The notes beneath the pieces are model-generated. The model was not told the DNA's origin, ran no database searches, and was given only the letters and a program-made list of their open reading frames with translations. DNA of 64,000 nt from Limonium bicolor (Eukaryota; Streptophyta; Magnoliopsida; Caryophyllales; Plumbaginaceae), in the NCBI GenBank assembly GCA_023374045.1, contig CM041776.1, positions 117,447,000 to 117,510,999 of the forward strand, in the 5' to 3' direction. Position 1 is the first letter of the stretch; each line of letters begins with the position of its first letter. This document shows positions 11,040 through 62,955 of this stretch, piece after piece. The translations under genes and the position numbers were made by a program.

Positions 11040-11044
11040 ATCTA

Positions 11045-11293: not shown

Positions 11294-11329
11294 AAAAGGG
11301 GTACGCCCCGTACCCTATACATATAAACA

Positions 11330-20872: not shown

Positions 20873-20881
20873 CTTATAAAG
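20873..20881 (-). promoter_or_regulatory. Putative TATA box of element B
   Basis: TTTATAAGC lies about 0.63 kb inside the 5' LTR, with a CT-rich leader-like stretch downstream, as in many plant promoters. The same motif and context occur in C at 36891-36899 and 46274-46282. Transcription start not shown. Confidence 0.45.
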
Positions 20882-36891: not shown

Positions 36892-36900
36892 TTTATAAGC
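36892..36900 (+). promoter_or_regulatory. Putative TATA box of element C
   Basis: TTTATAAGC, 0.79 kb into the LTR and followed by a CT-rich region resembling a plant 5' untranslated leader. Conserved with element B. A start here would give a leader of about 3.7 kb within the LTR. Confidence 0.45.
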
Positions 36901-38532: not shown

Positions 38533-38704
38533 GACCGACCCGGGGGACCGAACCTGGCAGGGTCGGTCGTACTGTAAATAGCAGGGTAAAAATGCTTCTG
38601 TTAGAGGCCGACCCATGGGACCGACCCTGTCTGGGTCGGTCGGATAGGAAGAAAAGACGGTAAATGTCTCTATTAAAGACCGACCCAAGGGTAGGGTCGG
38701 TCGG
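38533..38704 (+). repeat. Hairpin array in element C 5' LTR
   Basis: Three units at 38533-38569, 38609-38643 and 38678-38704, each GACCGACCC (or GCCGACCC) paired with GGGTCGGTCGG. The 3' LTR copy (47916-48100) has an extra 13-bp TAGGGTCGGTCGG unit. Confidence 0.85.
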
Positions 38705-39020
38705 ACCAAAAACATTGTTTAAGGTTATAAAATGATATGTAATGATGGGGATTGACTAGTAATGATGTTATAAGGTTGTTTAAGACATGTTAGGTGGGTT
38801 ATAATGACAATTTAGTGGGGGAAAAGGTGTATTAAGATGTAAAAGTAAAACAAGTTAAAAAGTGAAGTTATGTAATTAAGTTAACAGGGAAAAATTATAA
38901 GCATTAGACTTTGAACAATCATGCTACCCCGATGTTAATAAAATACATGTAATGTTATCAGTTGTTCGAGGATTGCTCGAGGAACATAAGTGAACACGAT
39001 AAAGTGGACTCCGGTGACAG

Positions 39021-40259: not shown

Positions 40260-40621
40260 GTACAAAGAGCAGGAAGCCGTTCGAGAGTAGGACGGGGTAG
40301 TCGTTGTACATGGGTAATCATTTAAGCGTATATATACAGTAGGTGTAGTAAGACCAAAATTGTTATCGGCATCAGTTTGTGAATACTCGGTACAGTTGAA
40401 AGGTGTATGTTGTTGTTGTTGTTAATGGAAAGGGATAGTAATGTGTAGTCGCTCGGGAATTTAGCCCATCAGACCGGTACAATGTATATGTATTAGCCTT
40501 GTTAGCCACGTGGGTGGTTAACGGCGTGTAACACCAAGAAGTTAAGTAATGTGTTGAAGTTTGCTTTCCGCTGCAGTTTGTTGTTAAATGTGTTTGTTGT
40601 TGGATGGGGTGTTACAAAAAG

Positions 40622-40633
40622 TGGTATCAGAGC
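40622..40633 (+). other. Element C primer-binding site (initiator tRNA-Met)
   Basis: TGGTATCAGAGC, five bases after the 5' LTR. Confidence 0.93.
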
Positions 40634-43600: not shown

Positions 43601-45475
43601 CACTAGGTAGTAGCTCAATCTCAACCGACAGTAAGTCGGAAGGGAACAAGTCAATCATTGTGAAATACGTAGCTGTATACACAGTAAATCGTTATGGAAG
43701 TAAATAGAAAGTTTATAACTCACCGAATTCGCTAACGGTAAGAGATACCACGCGTCGGTTGAGAAACCATTGTTACCAAGATGAAGGTGACAATTGGGGA
43801 TGTACAATACAGTAAGAATAACAAATGGGGCAACTAAGCCCTACAGTAGTCAGAGTTGCGCAGTAGACGCTAGTGAACCAGTGATTCAAATGTACAACGT
43901 GAATAATGAAAATGAGTGAATGGCTAGTTATTAATGCCGAGTAGCCTAACAGGCCAGAATCGTAACCAACTGAGAGTTTAAACAAACTCCAATGAGAATT
44001 CTTGGTTTAAGAACTAAACCGCTAATATGGTTAAGATCCTCTAATCAGAATCCATTGTGTAATAGACCGCGTGGAAGTTAAAACACTTCAAGACGGCAGA
44101 ACATCTTAAGCCAATGTTTAGTGATTGATTACGTGGGCGTAATCCCTTTTAAGGGGGGTAGAGCGCAAAACCACTTAGTGTGTATTACCGTACAAGTGTA
44201 CGTGATTTATGTTGTGCATAGCATAAAACAATTGGTTTTGATGATTGGTGTGTGTGTTATGTAAACATACGCATTCATTCATGGTTTAATTGTGGTATTG
44301 CGCACAGAAGATGCGAATACCATTGTGGTAAGTGTGTGTATTTGTTAACAATTGTGTGTGATAGTACAAGTGTGGGAGTAGAGAAACTCCCGGGGAACAA
44401 AAACCCCGACAGTGTATAAATGTGAAACTATGTGTGGTATTTTGATAAAATATATGTGTATATATATACTATATAGTGATTCATGAAAGAGTACGAAACT
44501 GACATAGAACCTAGTGAGAATGAGATTCACTAGGTAACAATATTAAAGTGAATGGAATTAACTGATAGACGGAGTTCTATCCCTTGGAGATGTATGATCA
44601 TGATTAGAATGATTAAAAAGATAGAAAATTGGAAATGAGTGATTTACTTGATGCTTGAAATTGAAGTGGGAGGTGAAACTTGATTATCATGAGATCAAGG
44701 GAAGCCGAACACAAATTGGGGTGGAAGGATAGTTCAACACTGATGCTGATCACATCAGGGTTGGATGATTCTTGAAGCTCCCTGTAAGTGGTCACAAATA
44801 ACCACACTAAGAAAAGAAGAAAGGAGCATAAGTTGGACTTGGAGTTATGTGTGTTTTCAAAAATGATTTTGAATTGGTATTTATAAAACGTCGATAGATA
44901 TTTTACATAGTTAAAGTTCTCTTAATTAACCTCATAAGGAAATTTTAAATTTAAGTGATTGTTTTGATCTCCCAAAGGCACGGGGACGAAAGGTGTCCAT
45001 CGCGACCGGGTTCTGCGGGATCACAGTGTATATCAAAGATATTTTTGATTGCTATACATGCTATGACATGTTGTGTGGTATGTGTAATAAATGTTATTTT
45101 GACTTTGATTTTCTAAAGTGTGTGCTATTAAGACCTATGAGTCTAAATGTGTTGTGTTACATAGACCTATGTGTCTAAAGGCTGTTATGTTATCAAGACC
45201 TATGTGTCTAAATGTGGTTATGTTACCCAAGACCAGAGAGTCTAAGGGTTGTTATGTATGTGTAAATGTTGTTAAGATACCCGGACCATTGAGTCCGAGG
45301 TTATCTTGTGAATATGTTATGTTATGTATGGATGTGAATGTGTTACCCGGACCATTAAGTCCGAGGTTGTAATGTAAAGTGTGTTTGGTTATGGAAGTTT
45401 TATTGCTATAAGTAATCCCCGTATTCTAATCTAATGATGTGTGGGAAGTGTGAACTTCGAGGACGAAGTTCCTTT
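40634..45475 (+). mobile_element. Element C internal region: non-coding, conserved with A and E
   Basis: 4.8 kb without gag or pol similarity; frames are short and random. Conserved pieces: hairpin CGCTTGCC/GGCAAGTG (41442-41459), hairpin GTACCA-GTA-TGGTAC (41985-41999), CCGAC/GTCGG hairpin near 43625, GATTACG-tggg-CGTAATC (44126-44143) with internal polypurine tract (44151-44158), structured block (about 44674-44765), and a GACC...GTC array (45129-45372). A TTTCAAAC-rich pyrimidine tract lies at 41645-41745. Such conservation of non-coding sequence argues for cis-acting RNA functions. Confidence 0.78.
45129..45372 (+). repeat. Array of short GACC...GTC inverted repeats in element C
   Basis: About six units: AGACCTATGAGTCT, two with GACCTATGTGTC, GACCAGAGAGTC, and two with GGACCATT(G/A)AGTCC, spaced 30-65 bp. 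The two last units change both arms together (extra G and C). Precedes the 3' LTR, as do comparable repeats in A. Confidence 0.72.
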
Positions 45476-45482
45476 AAGGGGG
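45476..45482 (+). other. Element C terminal polypurine tract
   Basis: AAGGGGG then TAGAT adjacent to the 3' LTR. Preceded by a perfect hairpin GAACTTCG-agga-CGAAGTTC (45452-45471). Confidence 0.83.
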
Positions 45483-45487
45483 TAGAT

Positions 45488-48400
45488 TGAAATACCCCAA
45501 ACCTTGATATGTGGTTTAAATATTAAACTATGGTATGTAAAGGCTAAAAAGTGCCTTAGAAACATCAGTGAACAACTTAAACCATAGTAAAATGCAATAA
45601 AGCACTAAGATACAGTTTGAGCAAAACATGCTTTAAGCTTGGAGTGAACTTGGTTAGGACCCAAAGAACCTACCAGGACTTAATAATATTCAATTATGAT
45701 TTAATAAGGCTAATTAAGTCCTTAGTGAATTTTGGTAGACAGTTAAACCAAATAAAACACAAGAAATGCCTTAAAGTCAATAAGAGCAAAAATGTGCTCT
45801 AAGCTTGGGATAAATTTGTATAAGACCTAATGGTCATACCTATACCTTATAAATATGTTAATGAACATATTAAATCAATTACCAAAGAAAACCAAGCTTG
45901 AAAACAAGTTAAAACACAAAAAGTGCTTTAAGGAGCCTTAAAGCACGTTTTTGAAAAATTGTCTTGTAAATGAGTTTTGAATGGCTAAATGTCCATCATT
46001 ACTCTTTAATTAACATGTGTACTATATAGTATCACATTTGGAAGTCTATATCAATGGGAAATCAAAAATTTCACTTCTATGTGCCTTGTTTTTATGAATA
46101 GTAACTTTTATAAACTAGTTTGTAACATAGGTTTGTATAAGTAATTAAATTGACAAATAAAGACTACATTACCCCTAAGTACTATTGGGGGCCGGTTTTC
46201 TTAAGTGTGGTGACTCACCACTCTCTTGTTAGTATGTTAAGAAAATGAAGAAGACTACTCAAGTTACTTTTTACTTTATAAGCATAAATATCTTCTAAAA
46301 AGCAAAACAAACTCACTTATCTCATTCTCTCATTTCTTTCCTTCATTTCCCATGGTTTCAAGTCTTCTTCAATCTCTCTTCTTCTCTTCATTCACGATTT
46401 GCAATAGTAAACACACAAACTCCATCTTTGACCACTTGTAATTCCTAGCTCACTTAACCAAATCAAAAACAAACACCACCATTCTCTTCCTCTCATCAAG
46501 CTCTTCATTCCTATCTTCTCAAAATTTCAAGAGCCCCATTTCGGTGCCATGGAGTTCTACCATTGAAGGAGCTTGAGCTTATATTTCTACATATTATTAC
46601 TCTCTTTTGCTTCTAGGTAAGGAATCTCAAAGAAAAATCATGTTTCCTCCATGTTTTTACCTTGACCGAAAATGCCCATTAATGGTGCTCTTTGTGTGAC
46701 TTTATTCTAGCTTCATTCCAACCTTTCATGGACTAGGTGGAGTCCTCTCTTGATATATATTCAAACTCTCTTCAAGGACCAAGGTAAAACAACTACATTA
46801 ATGTTTTTGAAATAATGTAAACCTAGGGTTTACAATGAGATGAAGCTTAAAGCTTGAATACTCATTATGTTATTTGTATAATGTTTAGTAGTTGACAAGG
46901 AATCAAATACCTTACCGGTTTTATAAGGAAACAAGGAAGAAGTTTGTGTGGAAAAGAGGTAAATATGCTAACCTAATGTGGTTTAAGGTCTTAGGAGAAA
47001 TGAGCTTGTATTGCTTATAAAGATGATCTAAGGAGCCAATGGGAAGTGACTTAGAAGAATGCTCTCAAGAGCTTAGTAAAAGGCATATGTGTTGTTGAGT
47101 GTATTTGCAGGTTAAAGGCAAATATATTATGGAAATTCAGTGTTTAAGGTTTATGCAATTTAAGGGCCTAAGTGCCAAGCAATTTAAGCATATGCACTAT
47201 ATTGTGAGGTAGTGCTAAATGTGTGAAGTTTGTGTATAAAATGTGTTTGATGGATTTTAGGTGTTCTTGAATGGAATAAGGTAAAAACCTAAGTTTTTGG
47301 ATGTGTGAATATACAAGAGAAGCTATGGCAAAAATTTAGTTAATGAACAAAGGAGTTCATGTGTTGTAATGAGATTTTATGACCTAGAAGGTGCTAGGAA
47401 TGGTTGAGTGTGAAGATGGTGAAATAAGGTGTTCTTAAGTGTTAAGATGCCTTGGGCACAATCTTGGAGGATTTAGAAATCAAATGAGTGTTTTATACAC
47501 ACCAAGGTTATGATATGTGAAGTATTAGGTCTTCTTAAAGTTTAGGTAAACAAAGGAAAAGTAATGCCTTGTGAAGGTCTAAGTGTAAACTTGAGGATAT
47601 AGAAGGAGTTGTGTAATGGAGGTGTTTGTGAGGAATGATGCTTGGAGTAGATGTGATGGTGGTGAGAAAACATTTTAGTTAGTTGTTATCATAAGTATAA
47701 ACCACCACTTAGGAACTTAGGGAAAAATGTTATAAGTGTTAAGGAATTTTACAAGGAAATGAGTAGATGTTTGAAGAGTTTAGAAATGAGTTAGAACTTG
47801 AGTTTAATGGATGTTATATGAAGTATTTAGTGTGCCATATGGTGTTGCAGCACATTGGGAGTCTTAAGGAAAAGTTTGGAACAATTTGGACAATTCTTAG
47901 GAAGTTTCTGCAGTAGACCGACCCGGGGGACCGAACCTGGCAGGGTCGGTCGTACTGTAAATAGTAGGGTAAAAATGCTTCTATTAGAGACCGACCCATG
48001 GGACCGACCGTGTCTGGGTCGGTCGGATAGGAAGAAAAGACGGTAAATGTCTCTGTTAAAGACCGACCCAAGGGTAGGGTCGGTCGGTAGGGTCGGTCGG
48101 ACCAAAAACATTGTTTAAGGTTATAAAATGATATGTAATGATGGGGATTGACTAGTAATGATGTTATAAGGTTGTTTAAGACATGTTAGGTGGGTTATAA
48201 TGACAATTTAGTGGGGGAAAAGGTGTATTAAGATGTAAAAGTAAAACAAGTTAAAAAGTGAAGTTATGTAATTAAGTTAACGAGGAAAATTATAAGCATT
48301 AGACTTTGAACAATCATGCTATCCCGATGTTAATAAAATACATGAAATGTTATCAGTTGTTCGAGGATTGCTCGAGGATCATAAGTGAACACGATAAAGT

Positions 48401-50012
48401 GGACTCCGGTGACAGGTATGGTTTTCTTGCAACCTGTGTCCTACTGGATTACACCGGCTTGTATGCCAATGTGTTTTTCTGTATGTTTGCCACGTTATAA
48501 GATAAATCATGTAACGAGTTTACAGTCGTTATTGTTGTTGTATGTCTACGTGCCGATACCAGTAACCTCGAATGCGCTTGAAGGGCTAGTTAACCACTAT
48601 TAGGTAAACGTAAGAGAACGGTATCCGGTGATAACGTTTCCGACCTAAGGAACGTTCTAACCACGGCTATGCGTGTGTTAGTTAGGTGATGTTTGTGGGT
48701 GATGTTTGCGTGTGAAAGTATGACTCTCCCTTCCCTTGTGTGTGTGTCTAACAAGACTTAACCCAATGTTGTGATTGTTTAACTAAGTTCAATGATGAAC
48801 TTCTGACAAGTGCTAACGGGGGAAGTGAGGAGTCCGGTCTGTTCCGGCCACGCGTGTGAGTATGGGGGTCGTTGTCATAGCAGGTTCGATCCTCTCCGTA
48901 TGTTATGGTTGTTTTCCAATTTGGTTTCCAACCTTCCCTTTAGCTTAACCAAGGCTATTACTGACTCACGTCGGGCCACAGGGGCATACTATGTTATGTT
49001 TGTTCGGTGTGCTTGGATCACTATATCCGAGACACCTTGTGCTAAGTTATCCGTTCATTTAACGAGACGGTAACGAGTTATGTAACAAGCTTATCATGAG
49101 ACTGGCAACATTCTCTAGGCTCACTAGTGTATTAACAATGTTTGGGTCGGTACCTAAGAGAACCGTTCCCGTTATGTTATGTGATGTTGTTGTAATGCAA
49201 TTTCTATTGCGATGTTATTATGTGCACGTTGAAACGTGAAAGTGTTGTTATGTGTTGTTATGTGATGCATGTTATATGTTGTAAAATGTGGAGTATGTGG
49301 ATCATGGATATGAATCCCAGTTTGTGATAAGAGGCGTTTAAGGATAACCCGATTATTGGGTAGTTGTCGTCTATTAAGGAAGTAGCTCCATTAGAGGAGG
49401 AACACTCTAGGGATAATGAATATCGTGAGTGACTTATTAAATAAGGATGTATTATCCGTTTATTGAGCCCATTGAGGCGAAATGTTGTGTGTTGTGTGTT
49501 TACAGTTGCATGCACGATTTAAATATAATCAACCGCATGCTAAGACGACAATTAGTTGTGTGTGGCCCGGATAGCATGCGGGCTGCGGGATTACCATACC
49601 AGCAAAGGTGCTGAGCCCCTTGGGGGCCACCCTTTCTCTTCTTTTCCTATTTCAGGTACAAAGAGTAGGAAGCCGTTCGAGAGTGGGACGGGGTAGTCGT
49701 TGTACATGGGTAATCATTTAAGCGTATATATACAGTAGGTGTAGTAAGACCGAAATTGTTATCGGCATCAGTTTGTGAATACTCGGTACAGTTGAAAGGT
49801 GTATGTTGTTGTTGTTGTTAATGGAAAGGGATAGTAATGTGTAGTCGCTCGGGAATTTAGCCCATCAGACCGGTACAATGTATATGTATTAGCCTTGTTA
49901 GCCACGTGGGTGGTTAACGGCGTGTAACACCAAGAAGTTAAGTAATGTGTTGAAGTTTGTTTTCCGCTGCAGTTTGTTGTTAAATGTGTTTGTTGTTGGA
50001 TGGGGTGTTACA
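45488..50012 (+). repeat. Element C 3' LTR (4525 bp)
   Basis: Near-identical to 36104-40616. The length difference is largely explained by a 13-bp duplication in the hairpin array at 48080-48100. Ends TGTTACA before CCACC, the right target duplication (50013-50017). Confidence 0.94.
47916..48100 (+). repeat. Hairpin array in element C 3' LTR
   Basis: Same three units as 38533-38704, plus a duplicated TAGGGTCGGTCGG at the end, so the array changes by stem-unit duplication. Confidence 0.86.
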
Positions 50013-53000
50013 CCACCATTTCTTCACATGTCCGAAAATTATCACTCATGGGGCTTCATGTTTATGCCTTGTTCTAGCTTGTTTTCAATTCTCCAAGGGC
50101 TAGAGGATGTCCTTCTTGCTTCATATCCAAGCCTATTCTAAGACTCCAAGGTAAAACAATCAATTTAATACCTTAAAGCACATTTTTAACCTAGGGTTTG
50201 TTCCTTAAGGTTAATGTATTATCTAGCACTCATTAGAGTCATTGGATATTGGTTAGAACATTGGCAAGGAGAGTTTAAGTGGTGACCAAGATTGTTCAAG
50301 GAATAAGGCTAAGGAAGAAAGTTTGTGAGCTTGTAAAAGAACAAGGTAAATTACTTACCTTAAGGTGTTTTATTGTTTAAGGGGATGGGATTTAGATATG
50401 TGATGAGTTTAGTGTAGAGTTTACATTGGGAAAGAGTTATAAAAACCTAGGAGAAACAATTATTATACTTGTGAACTTGTGACTAAGGAGCAAATGAGAA
50501 AAGAGATAGTTTAAGAACTACAAGGTGAATTATAAGAGAATTTACATTGCAATGGGAGCCCTATTGTGTGTATTTGCAGGTCAAAGGCTTTATATATTGA
50601 GGAAATTCAGTGTTTAAGATTTATGCATTTAAGGGCCTAAGAGCCAAGTCATTTAAGGGCCTAAGTGCCAAGCAATTTAAGTTTACGCACTATGTCGTGT
50701 TGTAGTGTAGTTTTGGTGTATGATGTGTGTTGAGATGGTGTAATGACAATTTAGGTGTTCATGGTTGTTTGGTGGTGAAAAACTAAATGTTGTGGTGTAA
50801 CAATATACTAGAGAACCCATGTCAAAATTTGGTGAAGAACCTAAGTGTTTAAGATGTGTTAAGGAGATTTTATGACTAAGGAAGCACTAGGAAACTTTAG
50901 GAGTTGTCTTGATGAAAAAGAGTGAGTTTAAGGTGTTGTTGAGAATTATAATGACTTAGGCATCATCATGGAGGATTTAGGAATCAAATGAATGTCTTGG
51001 GATATACTTGTGTATTTAGGAGTTAGGCAAATATTGGTAAACAAGTAGGAAGGAAATAATGTGTTGGAAGAAGGAGGCATAAACTTGTGAAGGAACTTTA
51101 AGTTATTGCATAAAGGAATTTTAGATGGTGAAAGATGCTTGGGAGATGATGTTATAGTGGTGAGGAAACATTTTGGCATAGTGGTTATAATAGGTATGAA
51201 CCACCACTTAGGAGCCTAGTGAAAAACATTACAAGTGTAGACATTATTATAAGGAAAATGCATAATGACTAAGGTGGATATTGGTGAGTGATTTAATGAG
51301 TTTAGTGGAAGTCTTAAGGTGTGTTTGAAGTGCCCAAATGAGGTTAGAACATACTAAGATATATGGGGTGAAGTTTGGAGTCAAATGGGAATTTAGAAAC
51401 AAAGGTCTGGAGCTGGCCGACCTTAGGGACCAGACCTGCAAGGTCGTTCGAGCCTAGTCTACACTACCGGAAAGAGTTTCTGGAATGGACCGACATTGGG
51501 GACCGGACTTGCAAGGTCGGTCGGGCTTGTATTTTGTGTACGATTTGAGTCTCTGGAAAGGACCGACCTTGGGACCGGACTTGCAAGGTCGGTCATGCCT
51601 AAAATTTTGTATGAGAATTAGTCTCTGGAATCGACCGAACTTGGGACCGACCTTGACAAGGTCGGTCGGGCTTAAATTTACAGAGGGGAAAACCCTCGGG
51701 AATGGTCCGACCTTGGGGACCGGACTTGCAAGGTCGGTCGGGGTAAAAACTTTCAACGGTAATAAGTACTGGAATGGACCGACCTTGGATAAGGTCGGTC
51801 GGTAAGGTCGGTCGAGCCAAAAACATAAAAAAAAAAAAGAAGAAACCTTTAAGATCAAAAGATGTTAATTGGTGTTAGGGTACCCCATTAAGAGGGTAAT
51901 GATGATTAGGAACCTAATGACCTAAGGAATTAAATAAAGTTAAGTATAAACTTTAATGTTTAAAATTAAGTTTATAAGGTTAAGTGGTAAGGACATAAGA
52001 GAGTATTGAATGGGAATCTTTAGGGACTAAGTGAGTTAAGTGAGGTGCAAATAACTAATGGCTTAAAAATGAATGAATGTTTTAGGTTTGTGAATTGGGA
52101 CCTGGGAGAAGGTTAAACAAACGACAGTCGACGGTGAACGGTACAGTCTTTCTTGTGACCTGCTTGCTAACGAGGTGTCCCTCGGCTTGTGTGCTATCTG
52201 TTTATTTGCTATGACTAAGACAAGATAAAGCATGCAACCGGTTATACTTGTTCTTGTTGTGAATGTGTTTTCTTTACACTAACCCGCGAGACTTGAGATT
52301 GTTACTAATTAAGTTTAGTACTTGTTGAGTTAAGAAGAGGAGTTAAGTATTGGTATCTGTTGGTTAATACCCGTTAAGGTTTAACTAACACATGGTTTGT
52401 AAGATTTTCACTAACTGGAACTTAAGGGGGGAGTGAGGAACCCGGGACTGACTCCGGTCATGCATGCTAAGGAAAGGGGGTCGGTATCTGAATCAGATCC
52501 GTCCTCCGCTTAAGGAATTGTCTTCGGACTTGTTGCCTAGGGTCGGTTGCGGGCTCAGCTACACTGGACTCCCGTCCAAGGTAGGTGGCATTAAGATGGT
52601 GCAGTAGGATCACATAAATCCTAAGTTTAAGATAAGATACAACTGTTTCCATTCTAGAAACGGTTTGTATAATGAGATTAAGATAAGTATAAGACTGAGG
52701 TAAGTTAAGGAGAACTGAGGATTAGTGGAATCAGATCTGGAGGAGGTTATTACTAACCCACTCGTTTAGGGAACGCTTGAGTCGTTCATTTGTGTGTGAA
52801 CTATGTATGTTCCTTTGTGGTATGTTGATTTATTGCACTTCATATTATGATTGTGATTCTAATCAACTTCCATGCTATCGACAATTAGTCGTCGTAGCCC
52901 CGTTAGCTTGGGGGCCACGAGAGGGTCGTACCAGCATTCGTGCTGACCCCCTTTGGGGGTTGTTTTTACACTTGCAGGTAAGCGGCCCATGAAGTCACAC

Positions 53001-53308
53001 CATGAGAGTAGGACCGGTTAGACTTAGGATGGGTTTTATTTTTGAGCACGGGTTGCGCATGTGCGCCCGTTTGTTTATATTTAAATTGATGGAAGTTTAT
53101 GTTGTCACTTGAGATACTCGAAACTCGGTTGGTGGGAATTTTGGACGGTATGTATATTTTGGATAAGTGTTGTAAATTATTAAAGTTCGGTATGTTCTTT
53201 TGATCAGACCGTGGCAAGGTCCTGGTGCCAGTTTATTCCGTTGTGATCATTGTGATTAAGTTGTTAAGTTCTGCGATAACCACGATTGGCTTTGGACGGG
53301 GTGTTACA
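50013..53308 (+). repeat. Element D 5' LTR, second piece
   Basis: Resumes with CCACCATTTC after LARD C and ends GGGGTGTTACA. Matches 60551-62955. Contains a conserved TATTTGCAGGTCAAAGG acceptor-like site (about 50573-50589), the hairpin array (about 51416-51816), an ACCCCC-TTT-GGGGGT hairpin and acceptor CTTGCAG (52971-52977), and an inverted repeat around GCGCATGTGCGC (53054-53066). Confidence 0.93.
51416..51816 (+). repeat. Hairpin array CCGACCTT/AAGGTCGG in element D 5' LTR
   Basis: Six units at about 60-65 bp spacing, most reading GACCGACCTTGG...AAGGTCGGTC. The frames rich in Gly/Pro/Arg that cover it on both strands are by-products. The matching array in the 3' LTR is at 61949-62350. 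Confidence 0.86.
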
Positions 53309-53313: not shown

Positions 53314-53325
53314 TGGTATCAGAGC
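53314..53325 (+). other. Element D primer-binding site (initiator tRNA-Met)
   Basis: TGGTATCAGAGC, five bases after the 5' LTR. The next 220 bases form the leader to gag. Confidence 0.93.
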
Positions 53326-53546: not shown

Positions 53547-54177
53547 ATGAAGGAGACAAGGCCGAGGCCGTGGTCGGGGCGACGAGACTGAGATACCGGG
53601 AGGGTAGACGATTGCAGAGATCGTAGCTGCCGCTTTAGGGCACATGGGCTATCAGCCAGGAGTGGGAGCACCACCTCCACCGCCATAGCCCCGGGAACCA
53701 AACTGGGTGAAGAGTCTAGCTGAGCTTCGACCCGCACACTTCAAGGGGGAGACTGATCCCGTCAAGCTTGAGGCGTACATCTCCGAGCTGGAGACCGCCT
53801 TCGAGACCCTTGATGTCCCTGCTGGGATCAAGGTACGTCTGGCTGCGTTCTACCTGAAAGGGGCAGCAGGCGATTTGTGGAACCTGGTGAGGGCCGAGCA
53901 TGTGGCCAATCCAGAGTTCGGCTGGGAGCAGTACACCGCATTGATACGAGCTAAGTACTATCCCGCCCATGTCCAGACAAAGAAGCGCCTACAGTTGGAT
54001 ACGCTTAAGCAGACCGACAAGATGACGGTGGACGAGTATTACTCAGAGTTCACCGCCTTGCTCCGTCTTCTGCCAGGTCTTGGATATTCAGACCCGATAC
54101 TGGTGGACCGCTTCTATGGCGGGCTTAGCCATCGACTCCGCTACGGCATGGGGCCGACGAGCTATACTACCTTGCAA
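53547..54177 (+). pseudogene. Element D gag exon 1 (capsid part)
   Basis: The likely ATG at 53547 begins an Arg-rich N-terminus that is out of frame with the rest. From 53707 the frame is open: LAELRPAHFKGE, VRLAAFYLKGAAGDLWNLV, FGWEQYTALIRAKYYPAHV, ALLRLLPGLGYSDPILVDRF, the retrotransposon Gag capsid core. The exon ends TACCTTGCAA before a GT donor; read on without splicing it stops 8 codons later. It forms the particle shell. The N-terminus is frameshifted, so this copy would not make the full Gag from its ATG. Confidence 0.88.
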
Positions 54178-54263
54178 GTAATAAGAATGGTTGAGATATG
54201 AGTAAGTAAATGAGTAAGATTTAGGTTGTGAGAAATAAGAGAAACTAATACTTTGGAAAGCAG
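54178..54263 (+). other. Element D predicted intron 1 in gag (86 bp)
   Basis: GTAATAAG...GAAAGCAG between LQ and ECYHAAAKVE. Removal gives one Gag frame (phase 0) where the unspliced frame stops at 54201. B has an intron at exactly the same codon with a different interior. Confidence 0.68.
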
Positions 54264-54856
54264 GAGTGCTATCATGCCGCTGCTAAGGTTGAGATAACCG
54301 TCCAGCTGAGGGACGAGGACAATGCTAAGAGAAAGAATGCCGGGAAGAGCATCGAGCATCAAGGGCAAGGAGGGTACAAGAAACAGAAGTATCAGCCTCA
54401 AGCCCAGAAGAGTCAGAACCAAAAAGGGAAGGAGGAAAAGGAGAAGGCTCCAGTAGAGCCACTGAAGTTGACATATGCATATGCAGCTAAGCCCCTGCGC
54501 TCAAGGGCACCAAAGGGATCTGAGATTGATAAGGGAGCCGGTGATGGCTACCAGCGACGCTACATCTGTCAGTGGTGTCACAAGGACCACCCTGGGCTCG
54601 ATTGTAAGGGGAACAAGGTTGAGTGCAACTATTGTGGGGTGTATGGGCACCAAGCATACGAGTGTTTCCAGAACCCCGCTAGTAGAGCCTTTAGGCCCGA
54701 GATGAAGGGCAAGGGCAAGACCGATCATGGAGCTGGATCAGACAGTCAGAGAAGGTGCAGCAAGCTGCAAAAAGAACCCACAGGTAGCCCAGAAGTCGGG
54801 ACCCACACTACACATGGTGGACTGGGACGATGAGCCTGAACCCACATCGAGACCAG
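54264..54856 (+). pseudogene. Element D gag exon 2 (linker and two zinc knuckles)
   Basis: Frame ECYHAAAKVEITVQLRDED..., a Lys/Gln-rich linker, then CQWCHKDHPGLDC and CNYCGVYGHQAYEC (54624-54665), which bind nucleic acid. A one-base shift near 54745 moves the rest (ending SRP, then a phase-1 donor) to another frame. Compared with B, no intron splits the linker from the knuckles. Exon end CGAGACCAG|GT is identical to that of B. Confidence 0.87.
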
Positions 54857-54988
54857 GTACTGCTAAAACCGTTAAGTGATATAATTACCTGCTTACCGCA
54901 TTATCATGCATGTTTGGTGAATAATTGAGTTAAGTAAGAATAAGATAAGATTAGAACTTAAGTGAGATATGACCTATTACCACCTTAG
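54857..54988 (+). other. Element D predicted intron 2 (gag to AlkB), 132 bp
   Basis: Donor CCAG|GTACTG, acceptor CACCTTAG|GAAAC. Joining is in frame in phase 1 and leads into the AlkB exon; unspliced, a stop follows after eight codons. The donor can alternatively pair with the acceptor at 55884 (see findings). Confidence 0.68.
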
Positions 54989-55728
54989 GAAACTTCAACA
55001 TTTGTTATCCAATACCTTCGACACCTAACCTGGAGGACACCGACATCGAAACCCGAGACTTTTCAACCGAACAATGTCAGGTTATCCGCCCAGGTATGAT
55101 TTTATTAAGGGGATACCTGACACCGGAAGCACAAATAGCCATCATCAGGAGATGCAGTCAACTAGGAGTGGGACCGGGAGGTTTTTATACACCGGAGTAC
55201 CCAGGAGGAGCAAGAATGAAGTTAAAGATGATGAGCTTAGGCAAGGATTGGAATCCTTATGCCAAGATGTACCAAACCACGAGGATACAAGATGGAGTCT
55301 CACCACCGGGAATACCAGAAGAGTTCCTTCCGGTTATTACACAAGTCGTGGAGATCGCTCAGCAGTTGGAAGCTGACCCGATTCCAGACATACAAGCGGA
55401 CATCTGCATTGTAAACTTCTATGAGAAAGATGGGCGACTTGGACTACATCAGGACAAGGACGTGACAACGGAGTCTCTCGAACGAGGGATACCTGTAGTG
55501 TCTTGGTCCATTGGAGATGACGCTGAATTTTTGTACGGCGAGCAGAAGCGTGCGGACTGTGCTAAAATGTTAATACTTAAGTCAGGGGATGTATTAGTTA
55601 TGGGAGGAGAATCAAGGATGTTGTACCATGGGATTAAGAGAATCAAGCCGAATACAGCACCGTCAGCAGTAATCAATTCGACGCATATGAGACTAGGACG
55701 GTTAAACCTAACCTTTAGACAATATTAG
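54989..55728 (+). CDS. AlkB-family 2-oxoglutarate/Fe(II) dioxygenase carried by element D
   Basis: An open frame of 246 codons from the splice acceptor to TAG; an internal Met at 55096 gives 210 residues. Counted from that Met: iron ligands His118 and Asp120 in GLHQDKD, His178 in YHGI, and 2-oxoglutarate-binding Arg202 and Arg208 in GRLNLTFRQY. GDVLVMGGESRM matches the AlkB family core. Known: AlkB enzymes remove methyl groups from RNA or DNA bases, using 2-oxoglutarate and O2. The central region (GPGGFYTPEY, LGKDWNPY, GIPEEFL, ADICIVNFYEKDGRLGL) most resembles plant ALKBH1-like proteins, so it was probably captured from a host gene. Inferred role: demethylation of element RNA or cDNA. It would be made as a Gag fusion if intron 2 is spliced; independent translation is less likely. 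No frame breaks in contrast to neighbouring pol. Confidence 0.93.
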
Positions 55729-55884
55729 TTATGTAACGTATTAAGTAAGAAGTAAAGATTGAGATGTAAGAAAAACACATGATGTAAACAAGATGGTTAT
55801 GAATAAAATAACAGTGTTGTTCATATAACTTGTTACGACTCTTGTTATACCATCATACTCATGAAAGCTTGTGAATACAATTAG
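55729..55884 (+). other. Element D spacer after AlkB stop, ending in acceptor AATTAG
   Basis: 156 bases without coding, mixing A-rich sequence with a pyrimidine-containing stretch (55826-55860), then ACAATTAG|G. Position and end match 14704-14875 of B. Predicted to be the downstream part of a 1.03 kb intron (54857-55884) that contains the whole AlkB exon. Confidence 0.58.
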
Positions 55885-56290
55885 GTTATGGACTCGGTAT
55901 GGAAGGTGCACTAAGCATACTTACAGAGGCACAGGCCGACGCCAGCGGCACTATCCTCACCGGCACCTTTCTGATTAATGGAATTGAGGCATCAGTTCTC
56001 TTCGACTCAGGGGCCTCGCATACCTTTATCTCGACATCGTTTGTGAAAAGGTTAGGGCTAGACGCCGATGAGCTACCCGACTTCACGGTTACGCTCCCGT
56101 CTAAAGAGAAGGTTCGTTGCACTCGCTACTACCGAGGAGCCATTGTCAGAATTAAGGGGGAGATTTTCCAGTCAGTTGTATTGAGTTTAAGGAGTTGGGA
56201 TTTGATGTTATTTTTGGGAAGAATTGGTTGGAGCGGCACAAGGGTCGTATCCTCTGCGCCGAGCATAGACTGCTACTCAGGAGTCCATCT
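55885..56290 (+). pseudogene. Element D aspartic protease (frameshifted at end)
   Basis: Frame from the acceptor gives LFDSGASHTFIS (FDSGAS at 56001-56018), the protease active site, and LPDFTVTLPSKEKVRCTRYYRG. A frameshift near 56165 moves the C-terminal part ([14 protein letters not shown]) into the RT frame starting at 56195. Cuts Gag and Pol polyproteins. Joined to the gag donor it would be in frame. Confidence 0.88.
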
Positions 56291-57109
56291 AGGGTAACAA
56301 TATCATACCACCAGAGGCCTAGAGAGCCTTCGACTAAGATCGTCACCACTATGGCAATGTATAAGGAGTTGAGGAGGAAGGAAGAAGTATATCTCTACTA
56401 TGTCCAGGACATAGAGAGGGACCCCGAGTTCGACCCCGACTTACCAGTAGTGTCGGAGTTCCTCGATCTGTTTCCACGGGAACTACCCGGCATGCCACCC
56501 ACTCGGGAGGTAGAATTCACCATCGAGCTGCTACCTGGTACCGGACCGATAGCCAAGGCACCATACCGCATGGCTCCGACAGAAATGAATGAGCTGAAAG
56601 AACAGTTAAAAGATTTATTGAATAAGGGATTTATCACACCGAGTGTATCACCTTGGGGAGCGCCAGTTCTCTTCGTGAAAAAGAAGGATGGTAGTCTCCG
56701 CCTCTGCATCGACTACAGAGAGTTGAATGCAGTGACTGTGAAGAACAAGTACCCACTACCCTGCATTGACGATCTGTTTGATCAGTTGAAGGGGGCATCT
56801 GTGTTTTCCAAGATTGATCTCAGATCGGGGTATCATCAAATAGCCATTAGGGAGGGGGATATTGAGAAGACGACATTCCGAACACAATACGGCCACTATG
56901 AGTTCACAGTGATGCCGTTCGGTTTGTCGAACGCACCGGCGAAATTTATGGATCTGATGAACCGCTTGTTCTGGGAACAGCTGGACAAGTCGGTTGTGGT
57001 ATTCATCGACGACATATTAATATATTTAGAGTCAAGGGCTGAACATGAGGAACATTTGAGGAGGGTGTTAGAGATATTAAGGGAGAACCAGTTATATGCT
57101 AAATTCTGA
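56291..57109 (+). pseudogene. Element D reverse transcriptase
   Basis: Open frame to 57109 with [48 protein letters not shown] and FIDDILIY (57003-57026), all core Ty3/gypsy RT motifs. A stop (TGA) interrupts AKF*KCEFW just after the palm, and a TAA follows in the WLD*VSFLG segment, so the enzyme is truncated before the thumb/connection region. Confidence 0.93.
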
Positions 57110-57790
57110 AAATGCGAGTTTTGGCTTGACTAAGTCTCATTCTTGGGTCATATTATCTCAGATGCTGGGATCTCAGTGGATCCAGCAAAGATTGATGTCG
57201 TACGTACTTGGCCAAGACCGAAGACTGTTACCGACATCCGGAGCTTTCTCGGTCTGGCAGGTTACTACCGGAGGTTTGTTAAGGATTTCAGCAAGGTCGC
57301 GAAGCCGATGACCAGTCTGATGAAGAAAGATGCACCGTTCGTGTGGACGGCTGATTGTGAGAGTTCGTTTTAGAGTTTGAAGGACTCATTGACCACTACA
57401 CCGGTTCTGACTATTCCAGACGGTATGGAGGGCTTTGAGGTTTACTGTGATGCATCCGGCAGAGGGTTGGGTTGCGTGCTCATGCAACATGGCAAGGTGG
57501 TGGCATATGCCTCACGCCAGTTGAAGAAACATGAGGAGAACTACCCCACACATGATTTAGAGCTGGGAGCTGTAGTCTTCGCTTTGAAGATATGGCGCCA
57601 CTACTTATACGGGGTTAGTGTGACGATCTACACCGATCACAAGAGCTTGAAATATATATTTACTCAGAAGAAGTTGAATCTCAGACAGAGGAGATGGTTA
57701 GAATTTCTGAAGGACTATGATATTGACCTCCAATACAAAGAGGGAAAGGCCAATGTTGTAGCGGATGCCCGGAGTCGTCGAGCACACTCA
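57110..57790 (+). pseudogene. Element D RT connection and RNase H
   Basis: Frame 57143-57373 holds [20 protein letters not shown], and frame 57377-58138 holds [35 protein letters not shown] and [12 protein letters not shown], the RNase H catalytic Asp and Glu positions. A TAG at 57371-57373 separates the two parts. Degrades RNA during cDNA synthesis. Confidence 0.92.
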
Positions 57791-58585
57791 CTCCATTCGC
57801 TAGTTTCTTTCTCCAGCTTGGTTGATAAGGTGCGAGAGGCTCAGAGGACAGATGAGTACATGAGGGAGGTCAGACAGAAGCTGACAGATGGTACCTTTGA
57901 GAGTCAGAAATATGACTTCAGACTTCACGACGATGATCAGATCAGACTTAAGGGCCGGTTATGCATACCACGGGGCAACACGGATCTGAAAGACCGTATA
58001 CTTAGAGAATCGCACTGTTCTTCAATTTCCATCCATCTGGGAGCCTCTAAGATGTATAAAGACATGAAGAGGTACTTCTGGTGGTCGGGGATGAAGACAG
58101 ATGTTACCGAGTTCGTCTTGAGGTGTCTCACATGTTAGAAGGTGAAATTCGAGCAGCGACGACCAGGCGGAAGGGTACAGTCGATGCCAGTTCCGGAGTG
58201 GAAGTTTCATGATATCTCCATGGACTTCGTAGTTGGACTCCCACCTGCTAGGGGAGGTCTCAACATGATATGGGTGGTGGTGGATCGCCTTACCAAAGTA
58301 GCCCAATTCATACCGATGAAGGATACTTGGAAGGTAACAAAATTAGCTGAGTTATTTGAGAAGGAAATTATGAGGCATCACGGGATACCTAAGACCATAG
58401 TATCAGATAAAGATACTAGATTCCTTTCGAGGTACTGGAGAGCTACTAAAGAAACGTTGGGTACGGAACTGAAGTTGAGTACCGCATTCCATCCTCAGAC
58501 AGATGGTCAGACTGAGCACACAATTCAGACACTCGAGGACATGATGAGGGCATGTGCCTTAGACTTCTAGGGCAGTTGGATTGAC
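57791..58585 (+). pseudogene. Element D integrase: zinc-binding domain and catalytic core
   Basis: HHCC region ([25 protein letters not shown]) is followed by TAG at 58136, where B has CAG. The core has MDFVVGLPP with the first Asp, VSDKDTRF with the second Asp, and HPQTDGQTEHTIQTLEDM with the Glu (the usual Arg is His). A second TAG, at 58568, again replaces CAG of B. The catalytic triad is present but the protein is broken. Confidence 0.92.
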
Positions 58586-59263
58586 AAATTGCATCTGATC
58601 GAGTTTTCATACAACAACAGCTATCACGCTTCGATCAAGATGGCACCTTTTCAAGTGTTGTACGGTAGACCATGTCGTACATCGCTCTGCTGGGATGAGT
58701 CGAGTAAGACGGTCATTATAGGACAAGAATACTTAGAACAGGTTAAGGCTGAAGTTCAGCAAATCAGGGAGAACATGAAAGCTGCTCCAGATAGGCAGAA
58801 GTCGTATGCTGATGTTCGACGACGAGACTTGGAGTTCGCAGTGGGCGACCGGGTATTTCTGCGAGTTTCACCGATGAAGGGTGTATTCAGATTTGGGCAG
58901 AAGGGCAAATTGAGCCCGAAGTTTGTTGGTCCTTATGAGATTACGGAGCGGGTGGGCCTAGTTGCTTACAGGTTGAATTTACCTGCTGAGCTGGGTAAAG
59001 TGCATGATGTTTTTCATGTTTCACAGCTAAAGAAATACATGCACCACCCCTCCCATGTGTTAGAACCTGAGAGGTTGACATTAGAACCAAATATGAGATT
59101 AGTGGAGGTTCCTCAGAGAATCCTGGATAGTAAGACTAGGGACACTCGCCATAAGTCAGTGCGACTGGTGAAGGTTCTCTGGCCTAACCAAGATGTCGAA
59201 GAGGCCACGTGGGAATTAGAGGATAAGATGAGGTCGAAGTACCCTTCTTTGTTTACCGACTAG
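58586..59263 (+). pseudogene. Element D integrase C-terminal region and chromodomain-like tail
   Basis: Open 224-codon frame: LIEFSYNNSYHASIKMAPFQ, a GKLSPKFVGPYEITERVG segment (GPY/F-type), VHDVFHVSQLKKY, and the tail VEEATWELEDKMRSKYPSLF typical of chromovirus chromodomains, which bind histone marks and steer integration. It ends at 59263; the internal polypurine tract follows 35 bases later. Confidence 0.93.
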
Positions 59264-59585: not shown

Positions 59586-59590
59586 TAGAT

Positions 59591-62500
59591 TGAAATACCC
59601 CAAACTTAGATATGGTGTTTAAGTGATAAACTTATATATAAGGAGGCTAAATAATGCCTTAGAAACATTAGGAAACAATTTAAACCAAAGGAAACACCAT
59701 AAGAGCAGTTTAAGCAAAAACATGCTCTAAGCTTGGAGAGACTTGGGTGAGCACCCAAATATCATTATAAGACCTTAGTAATATCCTAATGGTCATTTTA
59801 AGTCAATTACCAAAGAAAACCAAGCTCAAAAACAAGTTAAAACATAAATTGTGCTTTAAGGACTCTTAAAGCACATTTTTGAAAAATTGTCTTAGAAAGG
59901 GGTTTTAAGTGGCTAAATGCCCATGATTACTCCTTAATTAACTTGTGTACTAATTTATTATCACATTAGAAAGTCTAAATCAATGGGAAATCAAAATTTT
60001 CACAAATATGTGCATTAGTTGGTGAATAGTAACCAAATAGTGCCTAGTTTAGTCTTTAGTCAATTAAGTTCAATTAATTGGTCAAACAAGACCATGACTA
60101 GCTTAATTATAGGGGGTGGCCAGTTTTTAAGGTGATGATTCACCACATGATCAAATAACAAAAGAAAAGAAGAGAAAAAGTAAGTAAGGTTACTATTTGC
60201 TTTTAAAAGAAAACTTACCTTTTAGGCCATCTCTCTCCTCCTTTCTTCATTCTTCATCTTCCTCAACGATTTCTATTGCTCTCTTTCTTCTTCCTTCACG
60301 TAAAGGGCAGCCTCCATGCTAGCTCCATCTTCCTTTGACCACTACTTGCTCATTTTAGCTCCAAAACCAAAACAAAACACATATTCTTCTTAGTTAGCTC
60401 AAGTTCCTTCTTCCTATCTTTTCAAAACTTCAAGAGCTTTGATTTGGTGCCAAGCCAAACCGCCATTAGAGGAGGAAACTCAAGCTTGGAGACTCCATTA
60501 GCTTCTTCATTCTCTTAAGGTAAAGAATATGTAAGAAAAATCAAGTTCCCACCATTTCTTCACATGTCCGAAAATTATCACTCATGGGGCTTCATGTTTA
60601 TGCCTTGTTCTAGCTTGTTTTCAATTCTCCAAGGGCTAGAGAAGGTCCATCTTGCTTCATATCCAAGCCTATTCTAAGACTCCAAGGTAAAACAATCAAT
60701 TTAATACCTTAAAGCACATTTTTAACCTAGGGTTTCTTCCTTAAGGTTAATGTATTATCTAGCACTCATTAGAGTCATTGGATATTGGTTAGAACATTGG
60801 AAAGGAGAGTTTAAGTGGTGACCAAGATTGTTCAAGGAAAAAGGGTAAGGAGGAAAGTTTGTGAGCTTGTAAAAGAACAAGGTAAATTACTTACCTTACG
60901 GTGTTTTATTGTTTAAGGGGATGGGATTTAGATATGTGATGAGTTTAGTGTAGAGTTTACATTGGGAAAGAGTTATAAAAACCTGGGAGAAACAATGATT
61001 ATACTTGTGAACTTGTGACTAAGGAGCAAATGAGAAAGGAGATAGTTTAAGAACGACAAGGTGAATTATAAGAGAATTTACATTGCAATGGGAGCCCTGT
61101 TGTGTGTATTTGCAGGTCAAAGGCTTTATATATTGAGGAAATTCAGTGTTTGAGATTTATGCATTTAAGGGCCTAAGAGCCAAGTCATTTAAGGGCCTAA
61201 GTGCCAAGCAATTTAAGTTTATGCACTATGTCGTGTTGTAGTGTAGTTTTGGTGTATGATGTGTGTTGAGATGGTGTAATGACAATTTAGGTGTTCATGA
61301 TTGTTTGGTGGTGAAAAACTAAATGTTGTGGTGTAACAATATACTAGAGAACCCATGTCAAAATTTGGTGAAGAACCTAAGTGTTTAAGATGTGTTAAGG
61401 AGATTTTATGACTAAGGAAGCACTAGGAAACTTTAGGAGTTGTCTTGATGAAAAAGAGTGATTTTAAGGTGTTCTTGAGAATTATAATGACTTAGGCATC
61501 ATCATGGAGGATTTAGGAATCAAATGAATGTCTTGGGATATACTTGTGTATTTAGGACTTAGGCAAATATTGGTAAACAAGTAGGAAGGAAATAATGTGT
61601 TGGAAGAAGGAGGCATAAACTTGTGAAGGAACTTTAAGTAGTTGCATAAAGGAATTTTAGATGGTGAAAGATGATTGGGAGATGATGTTATAGTGGTGAG
61701 GAAACATTTTGGCATAGTGGTTATAATAGGTATGAACCACCACTTAGGAGCCTAGTGAAAAACATTACAAGTGTAGGCATTATTATAAGGTAAATGCATA
61801 ATGACTATGGTGGATATTGGTGAGTGATTTAATGAGTTTAGTGGAAGGCTTAAGGTGTGTTTGAAGTGCCCAAATGAGGTTAGAACATACTAAGATATAT
61901 GGGGTGAAGTTTGGAGTCAAATGGGTTTTTAGAAACAACGGTCTGGAGCCGACTGACCTTAGGGACCGGACCAACAAGGTCGGTCGAGCCCAGTCTACAC
62001 TACCGGAAAGAGTTTCTGGAATGGACCGACCTTGGGGACCGGACTTGCAAGGTCGGTCGGGCTTGTATTTTGTGTACGAATTGAGTCTCTGGAATGGACC
62101 GACCTTGGGACCGGACTTGCAAGGTCGGTCATGCCTAAAATTTTGTATGAGAATTAGTCTCTGGAATCGACCGAACTTGGGACCGACCTTGACAAGGTCG
62201 GTCGGGCTTAAATTTACAGAGGGGAAAACCCTCGGGAATGGTCCGACCTTGGGGACCGGACTTGCAAGGTCGGTCGGGGTAAAAACTTTCAACGGTAATA
62301 AGTACTGGAATGGACCGACCTTGGGTAAGGTCGGTCGGTAAGGTCGGTCGAACCAAAAACATAAAAAAAAAAAAAGAAAAATTTAAGATCAAAAGTTGTT
62401 AATTGGTGTTAAGGTACCCCATTAAGAGGGTAATGATGATTAGGAACCTAAGGACCTAAGGAATTAAGTAAAGTTAAGTATAAACTTTAATGTTTAAAAT

Positions 62501-62955
62501 TAAGTTTATAAGGTTAAGTGGTAAGGACATAAGAGAGTATTGAATGGGAATCTTTAGGGACTAAGTGAGTTAAGTGAGGTGCAAATAACTAATGGCTTAA
62601 AAATGAATGAATGTTTTAGGTTTGTGAATTGGGACCCCGGAGAAGGTTAAACAAACGACAGTCGACGGTGAACGGTACAGTCTTTCTTGTGACCTGCTTG
62701 CTAACGAGGTGTCCCTCGGCTTGTGTGCTATCTGTTTATTTGCTATGAGTAAGACAAGATAAAGCATGCAACCGGTTATACTTGTTCTCGTTGTGAATGT
62801 GTTTTCTTTACACTAACCCGCGAGACTTGAGATTGTTACTAATTAAGTTTAGTACTTGTTGAGTTAAGAAGAGGAGTTAAGTATTGGTATCTGTTGGTTA
62901 ATACCCGTTAAGGTTTAACTAACACATGGTTTGTAAGATTTTCACTAACTGGAAC
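59591..62955 (+). repeat. Element D 3' LTR, cut by element F
   Basis: Matches 35142-36103 joined to 50013 onward. It is uninterrupted through 60550, giving the empty-site sequence for LARD C. At 62955, where the 5' copy continues TTAAGGGGGG (52426), it breaks into the TGTAACACCCC of element F. Confidence 0.92.
61949..62350 (+). repeat. Hairpin array in element D 3' LTR
   Basis: Same six-unit array as 51416-51816. Differences include the first unit, where GACCTGC in the 5' copy is GACCAAC here. Confidence 0.86.

What the first reader, a model, noticed from the sequence alone, without database searches (positions are those of the whole stretch)
54989..55728. AlkB-type demethylase domain inside a Ty3/gypsy retrotransposon
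The domain between Gag and protease has the full AlkB active site: HxD in GLHQDKD, the second His in YHGI, and the two Arg in GRLNLTFRQY. A second, frameshifted copy sits at the same place in element B (14876-15615), so it is a family trait. AlkB domains are known in some plant RNA viruses, where they act on viral RNA; I am not aware of a described LTR retrotransposon carrying one. Host AlkB enzymes have been reported to affect retrotransposon RNA methylation, so a self-encoded eraser would be a plausible counter-defence against RNA methylation or alkylation damage. The role is inference.
Basis: partly seen in the sequence, partly recalled or inferred. Interest (0 to 1): 0.96.

Follow-up and report, generated by a model that had tools for sequence, protein, structure and literature searches.

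The report
Retrotransposon splicing Gag to captured AlkB
A large family of LTR retrotransposons in this unnamed, plant-like genome carries a conserved AlkB-type dioxygenase, likely captured from a plant ALKBH1 gene, between gag and pol; copies that lack introns exactly indicate that one splice donor in gag joins either to AlkB or to pol, which would make Gag-AlkB or Gag-Pol proteins, and the AlkB part is predicted to remove methyl groups from the element's own RNA or cDNA.

Summary
Window 54989-55728 encodes a complete AlkB domain (Pfam E=1.3e-45; model pLDDT 92.5; best PDB match rice ALKBH1) between gag and protease of a chromodomain Ty3/gypsy element; the diverged element B has it in the same place. 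It is a family trait: 150 of 150 scored matches in the genome cover the domain, 126 without a stop. Between B and D, AlkB dN/dS is 0.13 at dS about 1.6: old purifying selection, not one recent duplication. This one differs in element lineage, AlkB subfamily, position and expression. From B and D I predicted that one donor in gag serves two acceptors, before AlkB and before protease. Genome searches then found 14 gag-to-protease and 11 gag-to-AlkB copies with those junctions (reversed controls 0), recurrent on a tree, 15 B-type gag-to-protease junctions, and a second intron inside gag. So AlkB looks like an alternatively spliced Gag extension. No RNA was seen, and no copy had both the gag intron and the AlkB-proximal intron removed. 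Substrate and benefit (cleaning packaged RNA or cDNA) are inferred.

The parts
35142..36103 (+). Element D, left part of the 5' LTR (starts TGAAATACCCC)
   Evidence: Matches 59590-60553 at 97%
36104..50012 (+). Element C nested in the 5' LTR of D (LTRs 36104-40616 and 45488-50012; flanks CTACC/CCACC)
   Evidence: K2P between its LTRs 0.0143
50013..53308 (+). Element D, right part of the 5' LTR (first 5 bases are the target-site copy; ends GGGGTGTTACA)
   Evidence: 50013-52425 matches 60549-62960 at 97.7%; end read
53314..53325 (+). Primer binding site TGGTATCAGAGC (Met-tRNA type, recalled)
   Evidence: Pattern scan: 4 matches in the window, chance mean 0.23
53689..54177 (+). gag exon 1 (capsid; true start not determined)
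   Evidence: PF03732 E=2.9e-15; 3' end set by the intron junction
54178..54263 (+). gag intron, 86 nt, GTAATA...GCAG; its removal joins the two gag frames
   Evidence: Exactly absent in 7 of 14 gag^PR copies; junction at 553 places genome-wide, control 0; present in 28 of 30 AlkB-bearing copies, 2 unclear
54264..54856 (+). gag exon 2 with two CCHC knuckles, up to the shared splice donor CAG^GTACTG; one frame break in D itself
54857..54988 (+). Intron before AlkB (132 nt, 67% AT)
   Evidence: Predicted; absent in 11 of 11 gag^AlkB copies
54989..55728 (+). AlkB exon: 2OG-Fe(II) dioxygenase, HxD...H and the two Arg, own stop TAG
54857..55884 (+). Long intron (1028 nt, includes AlkB) whose removal joins gag to protease
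   Evidence: Junction at 14 places, control 0; the whole stretch absent in 14 of 14
55885..59263 (+). pol: protease, RT, RNase H, integrase, chromodomain; interrupted by stops and frame changes
59591..62955 (+). Element D, 3' LTR up to what looks like another insertion
14876..15615 (-). Element B, AlkB exon (indels; the same catalytic residues)
16448..16548 (-). Element B, predicted gag intron (101 nt, same phase as in D)
   Evidence: sequence only
6983..21504 (-). Element B (LTRs 6983-11039 and 17441-21504; PBS 17425-17436)
   Evidence: K2P between its LTRs 0.0140

Best explanation
This is a chromodomain Ty3/gypsy retrotransposon family that carries an ALKBH1-type AlkB dioxygenase, likely captured once from a plant gene, as an alternative exon between gag and pol: judging by exact intron losses in genomic copies, one donor at the end of gag is spliced either to AlkB, which would give Gag-AlkB, or past AlkB to protease, which would give Gag-Pol. 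Shown: the domain, its purifying selection, both junctions in genomic copies that look like reverse-transcribed spliced RNA, and open frames across each junction in some copies. Inferred: that both RNAs are translated, that Gag-AlkB assembles with Gag into virus-like particles through its capsid part, and that the enzyme removes methyl or alkyl groups there (m1A, m3C or N6-methyladenine on single-stranded template RNA or nascent cDNA), so that reverse transcription of host-modified or damaged templates can proceed. I think this packaged template-cleaning role likelier than a free cytoplasmic m6A eraser, because the enzyme is tied to Gag and its nearest studied relatives act on single-stranded or unpaired DNA.
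For: Domain and fold. Catalytic residues. Selection between B and D: AlkB dN/dS 0.13 (bootstrap 0.06-0.20; 241 of 242 codons), against 0.84 and 0.99 in the two flanking spacers (few codons, intervals 0.36-2.5). Splice prediction made before the genome search answered: only 1 of 9 conserved GT-AG pairs keeps frame into AlkB and 2 of 21 into protease in both B and D, the same donor each time; both spacers are 65-72% AT against 47-54% in exons. Test: gag^PR junction 14 places, gag^AlkB junction 11 places, 7 without mismatch, B-type gag^PR 15 places, loci not fetched, reversed controls 0 each; the unspliced donor at 2,159 places. Introns absent in 14 of 14 and 11 of 11 fetched copies. The junction copies are not one clade: 8 forced changes for each class, AU p=3.9e-5 and 2.8e-8. 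L036 reads open 417+395 codons across gag^PR, L047 203+246 across gag^AlkB (most of the 25 copies are shorter). L045, a gag^AlkB copy, has paired LTRs, a PBS and AAGGC on both sides. One capture: six retro AlkBs form a clade at 100/100; D, B and P0213 form a clade on RT, SH-aLRT 100.
Against: No RNA or protein data. No copy was seen with both the gag intron and the AlkB-proximal intron removed (gag intron present in the 8 of 11 gag^AlkB copies that could be judged), so the fully spliced Gag-AlkB messenger is not directly shown. Splice-site scores are only moderate (donor rank 7 of 130 in D, 13 of 171 in B; acceptors ranks 5 and 7 of 92 in D, 7 and 9 of 82 in B; weights recalled). The B-type gag^AlkB search did not complete. 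Junction copies are rare (14 and 11 against 2,159), and on the tree they are more clustered than shuffled labels (17 changes, shuffled mean 22.1), so some share a source. The AlkB tree puts the retro clade beside seed plants, not inside a host clade, and AU does not settle it (p=0.24). A conserved in-frame ATG 105 nt into the AlkB frame in both B and D would also allow a free AlkB. The substrate is untested.
Confidence: 0.72

Rival explanations
1. Free RNA eraser: AlkB is translated separately (for example from the ATG at 55096) and demethylates m6A on the element's RNA to escape host control, as proposed for orchid Gypsy elements and as host ALKBH9B does for ONSEN.
For: An in-frame ATG at the same place in B and D; the orchid precedent with in vitro m6A activity (PMC9289625); ALKBH9B and ONSEN (PMC12786077 passages).
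Against: The 35 codons upstream of that ATG also look coding between B and D (pN 0.23, pS 0.53, 22 of 35 residues the same), and gag^AlkB junctions exist in frame. The nearest host group is ALKBH1-type, not ALKBH5/9.
Confidence: 0.2
2. Acting on chromosomal DNA: AlkB removes N6-methyladenine from the element's cDNA or the target chromatin and so affects silencing or integration.
For: Closest solved protein is OsALKBH1; [quoted passage not shown]
Against: No test here; nuclear entry of a Gag fusion is unknown.
Confidence: 0.2
3. Passenger: a captured host fragment without function, kept because it is harmless.
For: D and B are broken elsewhere, as are several fetched copies.
Against: dN/dS 0.13 over 241 codons at dS about 1.6, like capsid (0.11), and about 0.9 (wide intervals) in the neighbouring spacers; 126 of 150 best copies without internal stops (a biased top slice).
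Confidence: 0.03
4. The junction copies are not from spliced RNA: they are deletions amplified from one source, or ancestral elements without AlkB.
For: L042-L043 are more diverged (71-84% identity); some junction copies come as close pairs (for example L038-L039, 9.2 kb apart); labels are somewhat clustered on the tree.
Against: 12 of 14 gag^PR copies have protease-RT 88-92% identical to D; junctions fall on GT-AG in two alternative ways; 8 forced changes for each class and AU rejects one clade; 7 of 14 also lack the gag intron exactly.
Confidence: 0.05

Closest known systems
Gypsy_Pa_2799, Phalaenopsis orchids (PMC9289625)
   Same: Ty3/gypsy element with an AlkB/2-ODD domain (PF13532), retained and amplified; proposed to counter host RNA control
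   Different: By that paper: Ogre/Tat lineage, 25.5 kb, AlkB of ALKBH5/9 type at the C-terminus of a separate ORF2. Here a chromodomain element, ALKBH1 type, between gag and protease, apparently reached by alternative splicing. The two AlkBs were not compared directly here
Plant ALKBH1 / ALKBH1D proteins (5xeg OsALKBH1)
   Same: 49% identity and TM 0.83/0.93 to 5xeg; the FDIC segment before the domain is shared
   Different: Most listed host proteins have longer N-terminal regions and are free enzymes; the retro clade is separate (100/100)
EVADE (copia) short-GAG splicing and Ogre gag-pro/pol intron
   Same: Alternative or partial splicing of an LTR element to make different Gag and Pol products (PMC12786077 and PMC6317226 passages)
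   Different: Here the alternative exon carries a captured enzyme, with one donor and two acceptors
AlkB domains of plant RNA viruses
   Same: Virus-like genome carrying AlkB
   Different: Only distant in structure (viral library: TMq at most 0.63 and 8-21% identity in the 50 rows listed)

Membership tests
AlkB-type 2OG-Fe(II) dioxygenase | PF13532 match above its curated cut-off | tested here: met
   156.5 bits against 31.2
AlkB-type 2OG-Fe(II) dioxygenase | HxD...H iron ligands and two 2OG-binding Arg | tested here: met
   H153, D155, H213 invariant and R237, R243 nearly invariant over 59 sequences
AlkB-type 2OG-Fe(II) dioxygenase | AlkB fold | tested here: met
   pLDDT 92.5; Foldseek best 5xeg, E=4.4e-29
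AlkB-type 2OG-Fe(II) dioxygenase | Oxidative demethylation activity | not testable with these tools
   Needs an assay
Plant ALKBH1 group | Groups inside the host ALKBH1 tree | tested here: inconclusive
   Retro clade with seed plants at 87/84 and 89/80 but outside them; AU p=0.24 for grouping with angiosperms
Ty3/gypsy chromovirus | Gag-PR-RT-RH-INT order with chromodomain | tested here: met
   chromodomain weak (22.7 bits, below the cut-off 25.1; E=9.6e-5)
Ty3/gypsy chromovirus | LTRs and tRNA primer site | tested here: met
Ty3/gypsy chromovirus | 5-bp target-site copies | tested here: inconclusive
   C has CTACC/CCACC; L045 has AAGGC twice; not seen for L034; D's own right end was not read
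Tekay clade | RT placement among reference Tekay elements | not tested
Orchid AlkB-Gypsy (Gypsy_Pa_2799) family | Ogre/Tat RT with ALKBH5-like ORF2 separate from the gag-pol ORF | tested here: not met
   Chromodomain present, AlkB between gag and PR, nearest ALKBH1; no RT tree with the orchid element
Spliced LTR retroelement (Ogre/EVADE-like) | Introns removed from element RNA | tested here: met
   From genomic copies, not from RNA:

The most novel reading that the evidence does not exclude
A retrotransposon lineage that has turned a host DNA/RNA repair demethylase into an optional structural part of its own particle: alternative splicing sets the ratio of Gag, Gag-AlkB and Gag-Pol, and the particle-borne enzyme clears base methylation that blocks reverse transcription or marks the element for silencing.
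Probability: 0.35. Interest if true: 0.93.

Novelty: new variant of a known kind. Interest (0 to 1): 0.83.

Why it matters
It appears to be a second AlkB capture by Ty3/gypsy elements, differing from the orchid one (as that paper describes it) in element lineage and AlkB subfamily, which suggests that base demethylation is a recurrent need of plant retroelements. It also offers a clear mechanism: the enzyme would be an alternative Gag extension, delivered to where reverse transcription happens. With over two thousand unspliced gag donor sites in one genome and the junctions mapped, whether host base methylation restrains retrotransposition becomes testable with RNA reads and a simple enzyme assay. 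Some frame breaks in plant retroelements that look like decay may be introns.

Tried and rejected
Rejected readings: chance match; one recent B/D duplication; a plain frameshift at gag 54201/54249 (it is an intron); independent initiation of pol (the first in-frame ATG of B lies 189 nt into the protease exon; D has one at 12 nt); Cinnamomum P0159 as a second gag-AlkB element (its AlkB groups with host genes, so it is probably a gene-model fusion). Led nowhere: viral contigs (244 pattern hits, none confirmed); plasmids (50 records, bacterial genera in the part of the tally shown); long annotated gag-AlkB proteins (44 hits of 541 candidates; only P0159 carried a gag domain). Queries with P0002 and P0003 in the own genome did not complete, so diverged subfamilies were not surveyed. 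One search used the wrong codon phase and is replaced. Searches stopped with script errors; 82 was repeated; 94 printed L001-L030 before it stopped. In one search the gag frame of D at the donor was set wrongly; one search corrects it.

Results against my reading: no doubly spliced gag^AlkB copy among the 8 of 11 that could be judged; moderate splice-site scores; target-site copy not seen for L034; no clear LTR pair in the stretches fetched for L036, and only 505 bp of one for L047; the left LTR of L045 lacks its TG; most frames across junctions are short; junction copies partly clustered on the tree.

Full report
What is there. Window 54989-55728 (+) encodes a complete AlkB domain with HxD, the distal His and both Arg. 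Pfam PF13532 scores 156.5 bits, E=1.3e-45. The nearest solved protein is rice ALKBH1 (5xeg/5xoi, E=2.3e-71; Foldseek E=4.4e-29, TM 0.83/0.93 on a model of pLDDT 92.5). Viral AlkB models are far more distant. H153, D155 and H213 are invariant in 59 relatives, and R237 and R243 nearly so.

The element. D has gag capsid, zinc knuckles, AlkB, protease, RT, RNase H, integrase and a weak chromodomain match, and a TGGTATCAGAGC primer site at 53314. Its 5' LTR starts at 35142 and is split by element C, which is flanked by CTACC/CCACC. D itself is decayed: a frame break in gag exon 2 and several in pol. B, on the minus strand, has the same order. LTR divergence (K2P) is 0.023-0.030 for D, 0.0140 for B, 0.0143 for C and 0.0175 for A; at a recalled rate of 1.3e-8 that is roughly 0.5-1.1 My, a rate unchecked for this host.

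Selection. Between B and D the AlkB exon has dN/dS 0.13 (bootstrap 0.06-0.20), dS about 1.6, 241 of 242 codons used. Capsid has 0.11, gag C-terminus 0.39, integrase/chromodomain 0.05; the two non-coding spacers around AlkB have 0.84 and 0.99, with wide intervals. So AlkB has been under purifying selection since B and D parted; dS is near saturation, so the ratio is approximate.

Family and origin. In the 2.92-Gb own genome, 150 of 150 scored matches are 89-100% identical; 126 of 150 have no stop (hand count); 52,867 first-look candidates, of which only these 150 were scored. The 150 are the best copies and so biased to intact ones. Of 30 fetched copies, D included, 28 show gag upstream and 30 protease and RT downstream. 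In protein databases the four nearest proteins, P0002-P0005, come from unnamed contigs. P0003 (AlkB) and P0213 (pol, 73% identity over 99%) are each on an ENA contig of 26,561 bases, probably the same one. Six retro AlkBs form one clade (100/100), placed beside seed-plant ALKBH1 with weak support; AU does not reject grouping with angiosperms (p=0.24). On RT, D, B and P0213 form a clade (SH-aLRT 100) among hits whose proteins carry no AlkB; none of the 120 listed pol hits has a convincing AlkB match (best E=0.12), and in the 23 of 120 that show both a zinc knuckle and the protease motif the linker is 39-126 residues. One capture into a gag-pol element without AlkB fits.

Splicing predicted. Between gag and protease, D and B have stops in all three frames. 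With the gag-tail frame, only donor 54857 with acceptor AG 54987 keeps frame into AlkB in both elements (1 of 9 conserved GT-AG pairs), and only donor 54857 with 55883 or 55904 into protease (2 of 21); both spacers are AT-rich. Site scores are moderate. Over 30 copies the donor is GT in 27 and the two acceptors AG in 29 each; of the 27 copies with a scored donor, 21 stay open from the gag end through AlkB and 27 from the gag end over about 110 nt of protease.

Splicing tested. If spliced RNA is sometimes reverse transcribed, exact junctions should lie in the genome. gag^PR: 14 places with up to 3 mismatches, reversed control 0; in 14 of 14 no match to the short intron, AlkB or spacer was found between gag and protease. 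gag^AlkB: 11 places with up to 2 mismatches, 7 with none, control 0; in 11 of 11 the short intron is absent while the spacer and protease remain. B-type gag^PR: 15 places with up to 3 mismatches, control 0, loci not fetched. The unspliced donor occurs exactly at 2,159 places, control 0. An 86-nt gag intron (54178-54263) came out of the same comparison: absent in 7 of 14 gag^PR copies (6 keep it, L044 unclear), its junction at 553 places, control 0, present in 28 of 30 AlkB-bearing copies with 2 unclear; read unspliced, gag meets a stop in or at this intron in 29 of 29 aligned copies (27 after the donor, 2 at it), and B has a 101-nt counterpart of the same phase.

These look like recurrent events. 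On a tree of 55 copies built without the spliced parts, gag^PR needs 11 changes and gag^AlkB 8, with 8 forced for each, and AU rejects one clade for either (3.9e-5, 2.8e-8); but the labels are more clustered than shuffled ones, so some copies share a source. L036 is open over 417+395 codons across gag^PR, L032 over 274+505, and L047 over 203+246 across gag^AlkB; most of the 25 are shorter. L045 has paired LTRs and AAGGC on both sides. Against: no copy shows the gag intron and the AlkB-proximal intron both gone, so the full Gag-AlkB messenger is inferred; recombination between spliced and unspliced RNAs during reverse transcription could explain it.

How it likely works (inferred). The unspliced RNA would be the genome. 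Removing the gag intron alone would give Gag; adding the short intron, Gag-AlkB; adding the long intron, Gag-Pol. Gag-AlkB would enter particles with Gag. [quoted passage not shown] coli AlkB structures with methylated A, C and m6A substrates are among the closest folds. A particle-borne enzyme would thus clear lesions from template RNA or cDNA. Substrate, packaging and benefit are untested.

Compared with what is known. PMC9289625 (outline, parts 1-4 of 7 and the Discussion read) describes Phalaenopsis Ogre/Tat elements with an ALKBH5-like ORF2 active on m6A RNA, and saw the domain in two Phalaenopsis genomes and no other of its 121 plant genomes. PMC12786077 (passages) tells of splicing in EVADE and Ogre and of the orchid case; PMC6317226 (passages and section 9) of the Ogre intron and of extra ORFs, most without known domains. 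In the listings of my searches I saw no chromovirus or Gag-linked AlkB (open-licence PMC only, listings capped in most, supplements not searchable). So the kind is known; the lineage, AlkB subfamily, position and alternative-exon expression are new as far as these searches show.

Noticed in passing
window 36104-50012: Element C has LTRs of about 4.5 kb, parts of which are about 85% like those of B, but no pol match inside: a probable non-autonomous partner that could use B-type proteins.
   Followed up: partly
window 1-3252 and 25135-28389: Element A: LTRs 25 kb apart with B nested between them; PBS at 3256, no pol match in its interior.
   Followed up: partly
window 62956 onward: The 3' LTR of D breaks off into TGTAACACCCC..., which looks like the inverted LTR of another element.
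   Followed up: no
L038 and L039 (C7:199518916 and 199528122): Two spliced gag^PR copies 9.2 kb apart in the same orientation and nearly identical: perhaps a tandem or shared-LTR array of a spliced copy.
   Followed up: no
P0122, P0123 (Smallanthus sonchifolius): Annotated plant proteins with several AlkB stretches in one chain (4 and 2), host-type rather than retro-type by their FDIC-region sequence.
   Followed up: no
P0133, P0135, P0145 and others: Fern, gymnosperm and liverwort ALKBH1 relatives carry extra domains PF23134 and PF06221 that the named angiosperm ones in that table lack.
   Followed up: no
window 54890-54912 and B partner: A block of about 22 bases (TGCTTACCGCATT(A)TCATGCATG) is nearly identical between B and D inside the otherwise diverged intron before AlkB; possibly a splicing signal.
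   Followed up: no
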